The notes beneath the pieces are model-generated. The model was given only the letters and a program-made list of their open reading frames with translations, ran no database searches and was not told the DNA's origin. The position numbers and the translations under genes are program-made. Positions 56,522-64,000 of a DNA stretch of 64,000 nt are shown here, piece after piece; position 1 is the first letter of the stretch, and every line of letters starts with the position of its first letter. Origin of the DNA: Cunninghamella blakesleeana (Eukaryota; Mucoromycota; Mucoromycetes; Mucorales; Cunninghamellaceae); NCBI GenBank assembly GCA_017871115.1, contig JAFCIZ010000011.1:823501-887500 (forward strand), in the 5' to 3' direction.

Positions 56522-59195
56522 ATGCTAGCTTCTTTATTAAAAATTGAAGCATTATTAAAGTGTAATATATGGTAAGTTAAAAAAATGATATACATATATT
56601 CTCATAGATATACTTATAAAAATGAAAAATCATAGTAACTAAAATTTATAATTAATATTTATTATATTAGTGGGAACCTGTTACGATCAACAAGAACTCT
56701 AACAGAATGTAACCATCGATATTGCGAGTAAGTAATAGTTACGTTATACACATATACTAATTAAAAAAGATATGGAAGTATAACTCAATAAAATATTTCT
56801 TATAAATAAAAAAAGGAATTGTATTTATGATCGATTAGGTACAGAAGGAAAATGTCCTCTATGTCATTTACCTGCTATAGTCAAAAATTTACGTAAGGAT
56901 CCAAAGAATGATACCCTTGTTACTTGTGTTAAAAAATTAAAGCAACTTATTATCGAAAAAATGGATAAAGAGGAAGAAGAAAGTTATGATTCTACCTCAC
57001 TACAAATGACAGCTACTTTTGATACTTCGACACGTAATTATCGTAAACAGCAACAATTTATGGATCAAAATAGCTACTCTTTAAATCAATTGGATAAATT
57101 ATCTCAAGACTACCAATGTATGAATGATAGTGATGATAATGATGATAATAGTAATGCCAATATTTTAAATTCATTGATATACACTACTACACCTGACAAT
57201 AATAACGATAATCATCTGTCTCAGCAAAATAATCACCTTTCAACAACTCCCGTAATAAATGATTCAAAAAAAGAAAATGAAAATAATAATAACCTACATT
57301 TGAAAAACAAACAGTTTTTTACCAATAATAAATACGATAGGTCAACAACTGGTATAAACCATTACCATCATTTATTGAAAGAGAAACAATCACAATCACA
57401 ACAACTTCAAATACAACAAAAACCAATAAAAGAAAACATTATTACAGATGATTTACTTTTGCAGTTAAGATATAATGACAAAAATGCTCTTGATTATGAT
57501 GGCTATAATAAGTCAAGTAATAATAACCACAGTAGTAGCGCAGGACAAGGAAATGAAGATAAACATCAATTTAACAATCCACAACGAAAACATGAACACC
57601 ATGGTACAACTGAAGAAAATGTTGAAAACCTACTTTTGGAAATGGAAATCAATGAAGATATCAATGATAGTGATGATGACGATAAAAATAAAATAAGCAT
57701 ATGCAATGGTTTTTCAACTATAAAAAATACATTACAACAATCAACTCAATTAAATAATAACCTGAAAAAAGAAAATGGTGGTAATAATAAAAATAGAAAA
57801 CAATCATGTACTAGTGTAGATGATTTATTGATGGCAATGGAATCTGAAGAAGCTGCAATAGATGATGAAGAGGAGGATGGAGAAGATAGGGGTGGTAATA
57901 ATACAACCTCCCATGAACCAATATTGATTTCGACCGGTAACATTTCAAAAATGATAACAACAACTAAATACAATAACAATAGCATTGATACAACTGACAA
58001 TATACACACAAAATACGAAAAGAAAGTAGATAAGCATCATTCACTACCATCACCCGCTAGTAAACGTAGGAAACTTACTTTTAATGAATCTATACCTCAT
58101 GTAAAATAATATGATTTTTTTAAAAAAAAGAAAGTAATATACTCTTAAAATTATGATAATAATATTATATATATTCCGTTTATAGGATGACAAGTTGAAA
58201 GATAATGATCCGATGCTACTTTCTAGAATAGAGAAGTGGGAATGCACTTTTTGTAAATTTATGAATAATATGGATCAAGAAATATGCGTCATTTGTAGAT
58301 ATAAACCAAGTAATAGAAATGGATTGATAGGTCATTATAATTATAGCTCTTTAAAGCAATCTCTACAACAACAATCTACAATTCCAAATATCATCGATAC
58401 ATCTCCAGTTTTTATACCAGCCACCATAGAGATAACAGCATCACAAGCTCAAACGTCACAATATCTAAATCAGACTATAAGCATTATGTCTACTGCATTA
58501 AATAAAAATGATTCCATATCTATCGATTCAGCCATGACAAAGGTGATTGATTTGAATTTAAAATTAGAAATATGTTCAAATATTAGAGATATAGATCAAG
58601 TCACTCATTTAATCACAAGTATTAATTCTGATGGATTATGTACTAGAACATCAAAATATTTAATTGGTATCATCACTGGCAAATGGATAGTTGACACTTC
58701 ATGTAAAAATAAAATAAAAAGAGCAAGAAAAAGAAATAGTATTACAAATATATAACTAAAATATACTTATATATATATAATATTCTAATATCTAATAAAG
58801 GGCTTTTAACTAGTATTCAAGCTGGCTATTGGTTACCAGAACAAGATTATGAAGTACGTGGAGATAAAATGTTAGGATATACAAATGGACCAAAGCGTGG
58901 ACGTGAACGTGATTTAAGCCAACCTTTTTTTCACGATCGGCAATTCTTTTTTTATGGTGATTATCCTTCGAAAGATAAATTATTATTAATGCAGCTGGTT
59001 ACAGCGGGTGGTGGTACTATTTATTCAAGAAGACCTTCGGAAAAAAAGAAAGACGCTGTCATTATCATTATACCTTCGATCTCAGTTTTACTTAAAAAAA
59101 ACAAATCGACAGTTTGGTTAAACCATTGTAAATATGTTAAAGATCGCGATTGGTTAATTGAAACAGTAGCTCGTGGAGTTCCCTTAGATATTTAG
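56522..59195 (+). CDS. BARD1/BRCA1-like: BRCA1/BARD1-family protein: RING, RanBP2-type zinc finger, tandem BRCT
   Basis: Five exons (56522-56571, 56671-56727, 56816-58100, 58186-58702, 58801-59195), 767 aa. The N-terminal C3HC4 RING is assembled across exons 1-3: LLKCNICGNLL, ECNHRYCENC, KCPLCHLPA, followed by a BARD1-like helix (NDTLVTCVKKLKQLI). Residues about 90-460 are Asn/Gln-rich and acidic with an NLS-like SKRRKL. Then a RanBP2/NZF finger (WECTFCKFMNNMDQEICVIC). BRCT1 includes LCTRTSKYLIGIITGKWIVD and WLLTSIQAGYWLPEQDYEVR, the latter continuing GDKMLGYTNGPKRGRE, which mirrors the BRCA1 BRCT linker. BRCT2 contains LLMQLVTAGGGTIYSRRP, which mirrors BARD1, and the end DWLIETVARGVPLDI also resembles BARD1. 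Family role: nuclear ubiquitin ligase in homologous recombination. Animal BARD1 has ankyrins where this protein has the finger. Confidence 0.88.
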
Positions 59196-59970: not shown

Positions 59971-62900
59971 TTAACCTCTAAGGTTACCCATAACGAGAGC
60001 CAATAAAGCCATACGAACATATAAACCGTAACGCATTTGACGGAAATAAGCAGCACGTTGATCATAATCGACTTCAGGTTCAATTTCATTTACACGAGGT
60101 AAAGGATGTAATACAATCATTTGAGATTTGGCCTTGCTGATCATATCATTGTTCAAAATAAAGGCATCCTTGACAGCGTTATATGCTTCATCTGTTTCGA
60201 AACGTTCCTTTTGTACACGAGTCATGTAAAGTACATCTGTATTACCAATGACTTCATCTAAAGAACTGTATACATTTTGAGTGACACCAGCTTGAGCTAC
60301 TTCGTCCATAACATCTTTAGGCATAGCTAAAGAAGGAGGAGCTACATAATTAAGTGTTACTTGATAATAAGCAAGAATCTTGACTAAACTGTGGACGGTA
60401 CGACCATTCTTCAAATCACCAACTAATGTAACGGTTAAACCATTGACAGTACCAAGTTCTTCACGAATAGTGAATACATCAAGGAAGGCTTGAGTAGGAT
60501 GTTCTCCAATACCATCACCAGCATTGATCACAGGGACTTTAGAGTATTTAGCAGCTAATTGAGCACTTCCAGGTTGAGGATGACGAAGGACAATACAATC
60601 AGAGTAGCAACCAAGAGTACGAACAGTATCAGCTAAAGATTCACCTTTTTGAACAGAGGAGGTAGTAGCGCTAACAGATACAACTTTACCACCTAAACGG
60701 TACATAGCGGCTTCAAATGAAGCAGAAGTACGAGTGGAAGGTTCAAAGAACATGGTACTTAATACACGACCTTCTAATAAATTGATACATCCGTAAAGTT
60801 CAACTAAATTACGCATTTCATGAGCAACACCAAATAAGACATGTAAATCATTACGATCAAATTGTTTGGATTTAAGGATATGGTTACGGTAGAAAGGTGA
60901 ACGAGTAAAGACACGAGCCAATGAAGCAGAGATTTCATAACGAGGAGAAGCAAAAGAAACTAATTGCTGATCAGAAGCACCGGCAAGCTTAACGGATTCA
61001 CCAGTGGTAACAGCATCGGTTGTCTTTTCAGCAGCAACAACAGCAGGAGCATTATCTACAGCAACAGCTTGAGCCTTCACTTGAGGAGCAGGAGTTGTTT
61101 CACTAACTTGTTCTTTTTCTTTTACTACAGTTTGAACAGATAAATCACGACCAAGATTACCTTGTGATTTACATAAACCATCCATAAAGACAGTCTTTTC
61201 AGACATGACTACACGATGAACAGATCCGCTAAGAGTTTGACCTTCAAGTGGAGACCATTGTTGATCCTTGACCTTCCATACTTGTTTACGATCTAATTCA
61301 ACTTCAACATAGGTATCGGCTTGAGGCACTAAACCAAAGATACGACGAGGGTTTTCATAGAATCGTTCGGTAATGTCAGCAAGACGTAATTTACCTTGGG
61401 CAACAGCATTTAATAATAAAGGTAAAGCTTCTTCAATACCAGATGAAACAGTAGCAGTCTTTCCTAAAGATTGGGCTAAAAGACGAGGAGTGGAGCCAAC
61501 AGAGAAACAATCAACGGCTTTAAGGTTAGCCCATAAAGCTTCTTGATCCTTCTTGGTAGGTAATAATTTAGTGTTATCATAATCTTCAGAGGCCAAGAAT
61601 AAAGCATAAACTGATACATCACAACTAACATCAAGTCCCTTTTTCTTACTAAGTTCAATAAGTGCTAAATCTTCTTTACTAGAAACATTGGTAACGTGAA
61701 TGACACGATTGTGTAAGGAGGCCAATAATAAAATAGAAGCAAGATCGGTACCCTTAGCATCAGTAACTACTAATTGAGAGCTAGGCCATGAAGAAAAGAC
61801 AGAATCAAAGATAGACACATTACCACTTCCAATCTTATCAGTATTGATATAAACAGCAGCAGCTTCAGAGGCAAGGTTACCTACATTGTTAGCATTATTA
61901 GCTGTAGCAGTGACATTAAGTAAATAATCTGTGTGAGCAGCCTTGTGAGCACTAACGTTAACAGCATCAAGAGCTTCAGCATTATTAACATCTTCGGCAA
62001 TAGCAGAGATAGTGGTATAACCAGCACAAACTGATGCTTTTGTAACATCAGCAAATTCTTCAGCCTTTCCTAAATAAGCATTAACATTGATCAAACCAGG
62101 TAAAACAGCAGTGGTATTGCTAGTCTTATAATCCACACCAGCAACTTCAAATTCCTTCATACGAGCAAGAGCTTCAACAAATAATTTAGCACATTTGACA
62201 TTGGTTAATAAAGGAATGGAGTAATCCACAGCCATACGACGAGAGCGATAACCTTTAGACATGTATGAAGCAGGACGGCGGTAACGGTTACGAGAAGGTA
62301 AATTGATATACATATCAATTAAGTTATTGGATAAATGTTGTTGTAAAGAGTATTCAGCCTTAAGTTTATCATTGACATCACCATCTAAAGCTTCCAAATG
62401 TTTGACAGGAATGTTATGTTCTTGAATAAAATCGGCAGTACCAGTGGTGGCAAAGATATTATAGCCCAATTCATGTAATTTCTTAACAGAGGGTAAAAAT
62501 TCTTGTTTTTCCTTATAAGAACCAATAGACAATAATATATTCTTCTTGGGAAGAGAGAAGCCAGTAGCTAATAAAGCTTTAAGGTAAGCAGAGTATTTAT
62601 CTTTACCGAAACAAGCAACTTCACCAGTAGAAGCCATTTCAACACCCAAAATAGGATCAGCACCAGATAAACGACTGAAAGAGAATTGGGGAACTTTAAC
62701 ACCAACATAATCTTTACCGATAGAGACCTTAGGATAAGGTTCGACAGGTAAACCTAACATAGCATGTGTAGCCATTTCAATCAAATCTACACCCATGACT
62801 TTAGAAACGAATGGGAAAGAACGAGCAGCACGAACGTTACATTCAATAACCTTAATTTCATTATTCTTTGCAATAAATTGAATATTGAAAGGACCTGTAA

Positions 62901-64000
62901 CATTCAAAGCACGACCAATCTTGGCAGTAGCAGTTTCAACCTTACGAATGGTTTCAGGATCAAGATCTTGAGGTGGAAGAACTAATGTAGCATCACCAGA
63001 GTGAACACCGGCATTTTCAACATGTTCAGAAACAACGTGCATGATTAATTTACCATCTAAGGCAACAGCATCCATTTCAATTTCTTTTGCTTCTTCAATA
63101 TATTTAGAAATTACTACAGGATGATCGCGAGAAACGGCAGCAGCTTCTTTAAGATAAGATGCAAGATCATCTTTAGAAGATACAACGTTCATAGCAGCAC
63201 CTGATAAAACATAAGAAGGACGGACAAGAACAGGGTAGCCAACATTAGCACAGAAGCTTTCAGCTTCTTCATAACTAGTTAACTCCTTCCATAAAGGTTG
63301 ATCTACACCAATACGATCACACATACGTGAGAATTTATAACGATTTTCAGCATTATCAATCATTTCAGGTGAAGTACCAAGTACCTTAACGTTTTGACGG
63401 TATAAAGGTAAAGCAATGTTATTAGGAGTTTGACCACCCATAGACATGATAACACCAGTGGAGTTTTCAATTTCGTAAATATCCATCACACGTTCCAAAT
63501 TGATATTTTCAAAGTATAAACGATCAGCTTCATCGTAATCAGTAGATACAGTTTCAGGATTATAATTTACCATCACAGTCTTGATACCCTTTTCACGTAA
63601 AGTACGAATGGCACGTACAGCACACCAATCGAATTCAACAGATGAACCAATACGATAAACACCAGAACCAAGTACCATAATACCATTGTCATCAAAAGTA
63701 ATATCGTGTTCAACAGCATTATAAGTCATGTATAAGTAATTGGTGAAAGCAGGGAATTCAGCAGCAACTATAATATATAAACATTTGTATCAATTATCAC
63801 TCTTCACATGGCCCTAATCTATTACCATTCACATATTTATTTTATTTAATTATTACCTGTATCAATTTGTTTAACATAAGGTGTAACACCAAATTCTTGA
63901 CGAAGACGACGAACGGCTAATTCATTACTGTTAATACGATTAGCAATTTGACGATCAGAGAAACCAAGTTGTTTAGCAGAGCGAATGAGATTACCAGGAA
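59971..64000 (-). CDS. URA2: URA2/CAD: CPSase large part, inactive DHOase, aspartate carbamoyltransferase (5' end outside window)
   Basis: Two exons visible (63857-64000, open at the window edge, and 59971-63767), about 1,313 codons of a protein usually near 2,200 aa. It makes carbamoyl phosphate and carbamoyl aspartate, the first steps of pyrimidine synthesis. From the N-terminal side: the end of the first CPSase half ([20 protein letters not shown]), then the second ATP-grasp half ([71 protein letters not shown]). The allosteric region follows ([16 protein letters not shown]). A DHOase-like domain comes next with [15 protein letters not shown] where active enzymes have a D-x-H-x-H motif, so it is a yeast-type pseudo-DHOase. 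A variable linker precedes ATCase: [16 protein letters not shown] binds carbamoyl phosphate, plus [16 protein letters not shown] and [11 protein letters not shown]. It ends at GNLRG. Strong codon bias suggests high expression. Confidence 0.96.

What the first reader, a model, noticed from the sequence alone, without database searches (positions are those of the whole stretch)
56522..59195. BRCA1/BARD1-type protein in a fungus, with an NZF-like finger in place of ankyrins
The spliced protein has RING, RanBP2/NZF finger and tandem BRCT. It mixes features of both animal partners: BRCT1 and the linker follow BRCA1 (KYLIGIITGKWIV, then EVRGD...NGPKRGRE), while the RING flank, LVTAGGGTIYSRRP and the C-terminal VPLDI follow BARD1. 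This would fit a descendant of a single ancestral gene, or a BARD1 that needs no partner. Human BARD1 reads nucleosomes through ankyrin and BRCT domains, including ubiquitin on H2A. An NZF finger (WECTFCKFMN...CVIC) could supply ubiquitin binding in another way; its usual Thr-Phe pair is Lys-Phe here, so affinity may differ. Dikarya lack this family.
Basis: partly seen in the sequence, partly recalled or inferred. Interest (0 to 1): 0.85.

Follow-up and report, generated by a model that had tools for sequence, protein, structure and literature searches.

The report
Fungal BARD1 with its BRCA1 partner
A mould related to Cunninghamella appears to carry both halves of the breast-cancer DNA-repair pair BRCA1-BARD1, and its BARD1 has a small zinc finger where animal BARD1 has ankyrin repeats, so the pair could be studied in a simple fungus whose H2A lacks the lysine that animal BARD1 reads.

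Summary
Exons 56522-59195 splice into one 767-aa protein with a BARD1-type RING, a RanBP2-type C4 finger and tandem BRCTs. All 20 fungal family rows examined keep the finger pattern.

The 'BRCA1-like' BRCT1 motif also occurs in coral and amphioxus BARD1, and nearly so in plant BARD1, so the protein is no mosaic. A joined RING+BRCT tree groups the fungal family with animal BARD1 (96/96) and rejects grouping it with BRCA1 (p 0.028).

The same genome holds a second RING-BRCT gene on contig C7 (464 aa in my model) whose RING matches BRCA1 best (E 1.3e-13). So the fungus has a candidate BRCA1-BARD1 pair, not a partner-free BARD1.

The finger lacks the Thr-Phe/Tyr ubiquitin dyad in 20 of 20 rows, ankyrins are absent, and two H2A copies have Gln at K15. 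An H2AK15ub reader is unlikely.

BRCA1 in early-diverging fungi was reported in 2024, and a 2014 paper hints at complex members in non-model fungi; my searches listed no paper describing a fungal BARD1 or the pair.

The parts
56522..56571 (+). exon 1: N-terminal helix and first two RING cysteines; the intron splits the codon of Cys17 (TG|T)
   Evidence: GT-AG; intron of the same phase in the equivalent Cys codon of the C7 gene
56671..56727 (+). exon 2 (57 nt): middle of the RING
   Evidence: public models of relatives that skip this stretch (19 residues in P0003, P0015, P0026; 18 in P0028) point to the same exon in other fungi, coral and Brassica
56816..58100 (+). exon 3: end of the RING, C-terminal helix, long Asn/Asp-rich linker
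57624..57851 (+). two copies of an acidic linker motif (residues 306- ENLLLEMEINED and 371- DDLLMAMESEE)
   Evidence: the motif pattern is found in 12 of 20 fungal rows; function unknown
58186..58702 (+). exon 4: RanBP2-type finger and most of BRCT1
58237..58296 (+). RanBP2/NZF-type C4 finger WECTFCKFMNNMDQEICVIC (residues 482-501)
   Evidence: pattern in 20 of 20 fungal rows; model resembles RanBP2-class fingers such as Trabid NZF1, Nup153, RYBP and MDM2, weak scores
58474..58869 (+). BRCT1 (residues about 561-660; crosses the intron 58703-58800); Thr567/Thr619/Lys621 at the BRCA1 phosphate-pocket positions
58801..59195 (+). exon 5: end of BRCT1, EVRGD...GPKRGRE linker, BRCT2, stop
58917..59192 (+). 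BRCT2 (residues about 676-767); GGGxIxSRxP as in BARD1; lacks the VAYHA loop of animal BARD1

Best explanation
The window gene is the fungal ortholog of BARD1, one chain of a BRCA1-BARD1 RING-BRCT ubiquitin ligase whose other chain is encoded on contig C7 of the same genome. Shown: the gene model, domain content, family-wide finger, tree position with animal BARD1, and a second RING-BRCT gene with a BRCA1-type RING (E2-face Cys-Pro-Ile-Cys, Lys after the last zinc Cys, ITKR). Inferred: the two RINGs pair through their flanking helices; the C7 RING recruits the E2 and docks on the nucleosome acidic patch through its Lys-Arg; the ligase marks the lysine-rich H2A tail in homology-directed repair; the window chain's BRCTs, with Thr/Thr/Lys at the phosphate-pocket positions, bring it to phosphorylated partners. 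The finger most likely serves as a protein-binding module rather than a classical ubiquitin reader. Unlike animal BARD1, this one has no ankyrin domain and no animal-type BRCT2 loop, and two H2A copies of the genome lack K15, so it should not read H2AK15ub.
For: Gene model and domains. PDB by sequence: BARD1 8off_Ea best (E 1.1e-20, RING plus BRCT). Second gene: human BRCA1 RING hits C7:3046830-3047057(-) at E 7.6e-8, BRCT_2 hits C7:3045038-3045316(-) at 2.1e-8; spliced 464 aa; best PDB chain is BRCA1 1jm7_A, E 1.3e-13 over RING and both flanks; BRCT_2 E 1.4e-11. Trees: RING, C7 + human BRCA1 96/93, fungal family + BRCA1s p 0.0227, fungal family + C7 p 0.0165; RING+BRCT, fungal family + animal BARD1 96/96, + BRCA1s p 0.0278, + C7 p 0.0036. 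Intron inside the second RING Cys codon of both genes. Pocket residues. H2A with Gln at the K15 position in two copies. BRCA2 OB1 in the same genome (E 1.6e-21; the match runs across three in-frame stops, presumably an intron).
Confidence: 0.78

Rival explanations
1. Single-gene form: the protein descends from the gene that existed before BRCA1 and BARD1 split, or is a BARD1 that does both jobs without a partner.
For: BRCT1 and linker score nearest BRCA1, RING nearest BARD1. BLAST with this gene's own BRCT finds no other gene in the genome at E<=10.
Against: A second RING-BRCT gene with a BRCA1-type RING exists. Coral and amphioxus BARD1 share the BRCT1 motif. The joined tree puts the family beside animal BARD1, away from BRCA1, 96/96.
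Confidence: 0.06
2. Homodimeric E3: the window RING keeps enough E2-binding surface (Ile at the BRCA1 I26 position, Lys at the R71 position) to work as a RAD18-like homodimer, with the C7 protein doing something else.
Against: In the window it is His, as in 4 of the 11 rows; the other 4 have Asp, Gly or Gln. A BRCA1-type RING with Lys there is present in the genome.
Confidence: 0.12
3. The finger replaces the ankyrin/BRCT2 reader as a ubiquitin reader, giving positive feedback like RYBP's NZF in PRC1.
For: RanBP2/NZF-type fold; Foldseek's nearest chains include Trabid NZF1 and RYBP-PRC1 bound to H2AK119ub (best E 0.10). An aromatic stands second after Cys2 in 19 of 20 rows, and a hydrophobic residue precedes the last Cys.
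Against: Thr-Phe/Tyr in 0 of 20 rows; this dyad is described as critical for, or contributing to, ubiquitin binding (PMC12383448 and PMC12805371, passages seen). Ran-, RNA- and RPL11-binding fingers match about as well.
Confidence: 0.2
4. Annotation artefact: RING exons and BRCT exons belong to separate genes.
For: Public models of C. echinulata, C. blakesleeana and Absidia cylindrospora start after the RING (P0001, P0002, P0004).
Against: Several relatives carry both in one model, e.g. P0005, P0006, P0008, P0012; open GT-AG spliced frame without internal stop.
Confidence: 0.03

Closest known systems
Animal BARD1 (RING - ankyrin - BRCT2)
   Same: BARD1-type RING, tandem C-terminal BRCTs, CxRTxKYLxG...GKWIV motif (coral, sea anemone, amphioxus), LFxG..FYF and GGGxIxSRxP in BRCT2, a 57-nt RING exon inferred for coral
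   Different: No ankyrin repeats, no VAYHA loop in BRCT2, RanBP2-type finger present
Plant BARD1 (RING - ePHD - BRCT2)
   Same: RING, a zinc module in the middle, tandem BRCTs, no ankyrins; RING exon pattern (54 nt inferred for Brassica)
   Different: The plant middle module is PF13771, not a 20-residue C4 finger; fungal + plant grouping is rejected (p 0.026)
BRCA1
   Same: BRCT1 and linker EVRGD...GPKRxRE; intron in the second RING Cys codon shared with the C7 gene
   Different: The window RING is of the other type; the BRCA1-type gene is a separate locus on C7 of the same genome
'BRCA1' homologs of early-diverging fungi (Barua et al. 2024, PMC11061109)
   Same: BRCA1 homologs reported in Mucor, Rhizopus and Lobosporangium
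   Different: Its main text has no occurrence of BARD1 or BRCT; which of the two genes it counted cannot be told without its supplement
BRCA1-complex survey (PMC3969565, 2014)
   Same: Says BARD1 and BRCA1 were lost in S. cerevisiae and S. [quoted passage not shown]
   Different: The passage names no fungal BARD1 and describes no architecture; its figure is not held
NZF fingers (Npl4, TAB2, Trabid, RYBP)
   Same: Cysteine spacing, Trp and Asn of the RanBP2 signature, small two-hairpin fold in the model
   Different: No Thr-Phe/Tyr dyad in any of 20 rows; P0003-P0006 have one extra residue between Cys2 and Asn, P0010 one between Asn and Cys3

Membership tests
BARD1 (orthologous group, animals and plants) | BARD1-type RING | tested here: met
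   PF14835 41.6 bits against cut-off 35; BARD1 RING 44-48 bits in PDB chains. Of six relatives scanned, P0005 (40.0) and P0008 (35.3) reach the cut-off, P0011 (25.6) and P0012 (23.8) do not, P0014 and P0016 are not listed for it (their models lack part of the RING)
BARD1 (orthologous group, animals and plants) | C-terminal tandem BRCT | tested here: met
BARD1 (orthologous group, animals and plants) | groups with BARD1, not BRCA1, in a tree | tested here: met
   96/96 with animal BARD1, BRCA1 grouping p 0.028; BRCT alone 94/94, p 0.065; RING alone unresolved for animal BARD1, BRCA1 grouping p 0.0227
BARD1 (orthologous group, animals and plants) | a BRCA1-type partner in the same genome | tested here: met
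BARD1 (orthologous group, animals and plants) | RING-flanking helices that dimerise with BRCA1 | tested here: inconclusive
   helices 2-10 and 63-81 in the model of relative P0012; pairing not testable here
Animal-type BARD1 | ankyrin domain | tested here: not met
   none by Pfam in the window protein or six relatives; none in the precomputed Pfam of the 19 fungal relatives
Animal-type BARD1 | H2AK15ub-reading BRCT2 region | tested here: inconclusive
   the VAYHA loop pattern is found in 5 of 5 animal rows searched and 0 of 20 fungal rows, two of which (P0018, P0025) are cut off before BRCT2; that this loop holds the BUDR motif is recalled, not from a call
BRCA1 | BRCA1-type RING (Ile on E2 face, Lys after last Cys, ITKR) | tested here: not met
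   window RING reads CNIC...CPLCHLPAIVKNL (Ile present, Lys and ITKR absent); the C7 gene has all three
Ubiquitin-binding NZF | RanBP2 signature W-x-C-x2-C-x3-N-x6-C-x2-C | tested here: met
   exact in the window and in 15 of 20 rows; one extra residue in the other 5. Pfam PF00641 stays under its cut-off
Ubiquitin-binding NZF | Thr-(Phe/Tyr) dyad after Cys2 | tested here: not met
   0 of 20 rows

The most novel reading that the evidence does not exclude
Mucoromycota keep a working BRCA1-BARD1 ligase that never used, or has dropped, the H2AK15ub/H4K20 reading of animals: BARD1's middle slot is a swappable module (ankyrins in animals, ePHD in plants, a RanBP2 finger here), the phosphopeptide-reading BRCT sits on BARD1 instead of BRCA1 (the C7 pocket is degenerate, S1655 to Glu, T1700 to Ile), and the finger reads something new at damaged chromatin.
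Probability: 0.35. Interest if true: 0.75.

Novelty: new variant of a known kind. Interest (0 to 1): 0.6.

Why it matters
One paper states that databases hold no fungal BRCA1 (PMC8483008, passage), another reports BRCA1 homologs in early-diverging fungi (PMC11061109). A candidate BRCA1-BARD1 pair in a compact mould genome that also has a BRCA2 domain would allow the core ligase function to be tested where H2A K15 and the animal-type reader are missing. It also makes the middle module of BARD1 a testable variable: ankyrin, ePHD or RanBP2 finger on the same RING-BRCT frame.

Tried and rejected

Rows left out: BRCT tree, 14 of 20 fungal rows used (left out P0004, P0010, P0015, P0017, P0018, P0025); RING tree, 11 of 20; joined tree, 7 fungal rows, Hesseltinella left out although it was in both single trees. 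Considered and left: a UIM-like reading of the acidic DDLLxAME repeats (the motif's Ser is Glu; no Pfam hit).

Full report
What is there. Pfam finds a BARD1-type RING (PF14835), tandem BRCTs and, below cut-off, a RanBP2 finger. Among PDB sequences the best chain is BARD1 (8off_Ea, E 1.1e-20, both RING and BRCT); next come BRCA1 BRCT chains (best E 3.7e-15, a mutant; wild type 56.4 bits), and BARD1 BRCT chains alone score lower (about 35 bits).

Family. A search with the BRCT region gave 6 relatives among 594 candidates; a profile search gave 30 at E<=0.001 among 7240 candidates: 17 from Mucorales genera, one from Endogone, 12 from animals, plants or unnamed. The nearest relatives are Cunninghamella echinulata (91% over the BRCT region) and C. 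blakesleeana (81%), so the window is inferred to be a Cunninghamella. All 20 fungal rows used (window, P0001-P0018, P0025) carry the finger pattern between linker and BRCT; 0 of the 33 other sequences checked do, though 12 of those are short fragments. Pfam itself stays under its cut-off for the finger in the window and lists it in only two of six relatives scanned. Ankyrins are absent from the fungal rows by Pfam. Several public models skip the small RING exon or start after it, which can hide the RING from annotation.

Why it is not a mosaic. Coral, sea anemone and amphioxus BARD1 read CPRTIKYLNGVVTGKW, CRRTIKYLSGILCGKW and CPRTIKYLRGVLTGKW; the window reads CTRTSKYLIGIITGKW; plant BARD1 reads CTRTLKVLMGILNGKW. 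The BRCT1 likeness to BRCA1 is therefore most simply a shared ancestral state.

The partner. Own-genome searches with the window's own domains found only its own BRCT exons and, for the RING, more distant RINGs, among them an unrecognised hit on C7 at E 0.007. Human BRCA1 hit the same C7 place (3046830-3047057, -) at E 7.6e-8, and BRCT_2 hit 1.5 kb downstream on the same strand (C7:3045038-3045316, E 2.1e-8). Eight exons join into 464 aa: a RING with CPICL, Lys after the last Cys and ITKR, then a short linker and tandem BRCTs (BRCT_2 E 1.4e-11). Its best PDB chain is the human BRCA1 RING with both flanks (E 1.3e-13). Against this, the only BRCT chain among the 60 of 162 shown is BARD1 at E 1e-5, so its BRCTs are divergent and the BRCA1 name rests on the RING, on linkage to BRCTs and on the RING tree. 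Both genes have an intron inside the codon of the second RING Cys (TG|T). Human BRCA1 and BARD1 are recalled to share it; that was not checked here.

Trees. RING alone, 23 rows: C7 with human BRCA1 96/93; window family with the BRCA1s rejected (p 0.0227), with C7 rejected (p 0.0165), with animal BARD1 not rejected (p 0.271) but not in the best tree. RING+BRCT, 15 rows: window family with animal BARD1 96/96, with the BRCA1s p 0.0278, with C7 p 0.0036, with plant BARD1 p 0.0256, C7 with human BRCA1 79/71. C7 and human BRCA1 are long branches and treekit warns about that join; only one BRCA1 from outside this genome was in the trees. Rows left out are told under Tried and rejected.

How it may work. 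The C7 chain has the residues of the active half (Ile on the E2 face, Lys after the last Cys, Lys-Arg; their roles in human BRCA1 are recalled); by analogy it would recruit the E2 and dock on the acidic patch (acidic-patch dependence of the human ligase: PMC10639053, passages seen). The window chain would pair through its RING flanks, predicted as helices in a Mucor relative. The window BRCTs have Thr/Thr/Lys at S1655/T1700/K1702, and Arg at R1699, in all five fungal rows tabulated, while C7 has Glu/Ile/Lys and Lys at R1699, so phosphopeptide reading appears to sit on the BARD1 chain (C7 is aligned at low identity). These steps are inferred.

Histone reading. Human BARD1 reads H2AK15ub and H4K20me0 through ankyrin and BRCT modules (PMC10639053, PMC8514019, passages seen). 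Here there are no ankyrins. The VAYHA loop pattern of animal BRCT2 is found in 5 of 5 animal rows searched and in 0 of 20 fungal rows, two of which are cut off before BRCT2. Two H2A copies (of four matches; the other two were not read) have GSKSQTRSSKAG, with Gln where human H2A has K15 and Lys kept at K13, by eye. K15 itself therefore cannot be ubiquitylated on these two H2As; K13 could.

In print. Barua et al. 2024 (PMC11061109; passages, outline, part 1 of Results, and the domain, phylogenetics and methods sections seen) report BRCA1 homologs in early-diverging fungi, with transcripts in Mucor, Rhizopus and Lobosporangium; BARD1 does not occur in the main text. [quoted passage not shown] figure not held), which may mean that fungal BARD1 genes had been counted before. 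A 2021 paper says databases contain no fungal BRCA1 (PMC8483008, passages). Searches for BARD1 with fungal terms listed no paper describing a fungal BARD1 or the pair: 0 of 0, 20 of 444, 9 of 9, 5 of 5, 20 of 34, 15 of 1,830, none with BARD1, and 8 of 15 were listed; most subscription journals are not in that library.

Verdict. New variant of a known kind.

Noticed in passing
G000 contig C7:3045029-3047255 (-), locus L041: A 464-aa BRCA1-type RING-BRCT gene, far shorter than human BRCA1, with a degenerate BRCT phosphate pocket.
   Followed up: yes
window 57624-57851 (residues 306- and 371-) and relatives: Acidic motif DDLLxAMExEE repeated in the linker; the pattern is in 12 of 20 fungal rows; in Fennellomyces, Zychaea and Phascolomyces it runs into ..PDDE[LVI].. 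No known motif assigned.
   Followed up: partly
L044 and L045 (H2A genes of the genome): Both H2A copies have Gln at the K15 position, Lys at K13, and end SKSKKGAASQEI.
   Followed up: partly
P0001, P0002, P0003, P0004, P0015, P0016, P0026, P0028: Public gene models of fungal, coral and Brassica BARD1 skip the small RING exon or begin after the RING, hiding the domain from annotation.
   Followed up: partly
window 59971-63789 (-) and beyond: Neighbouring gene looks like a URA2/CAD-type fusion ending in aspartate carbamoyltransferase (read by eye from the ORF).
   Followed up: no
G000 contig C10:67945-68289 (+): BRCA2 OB1 domain match (E 1.6e-21, across three in-frame stops, presumably an intron), so the BRCA2 arm of repair is probably there too; PALB2 could not be judged.
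   Followed up: no
G000 C6:1596404 and C2:1240915: Two BRE1-like RING genes by eye, suggesting a duplicated H2B ligase.
   Followed up: no
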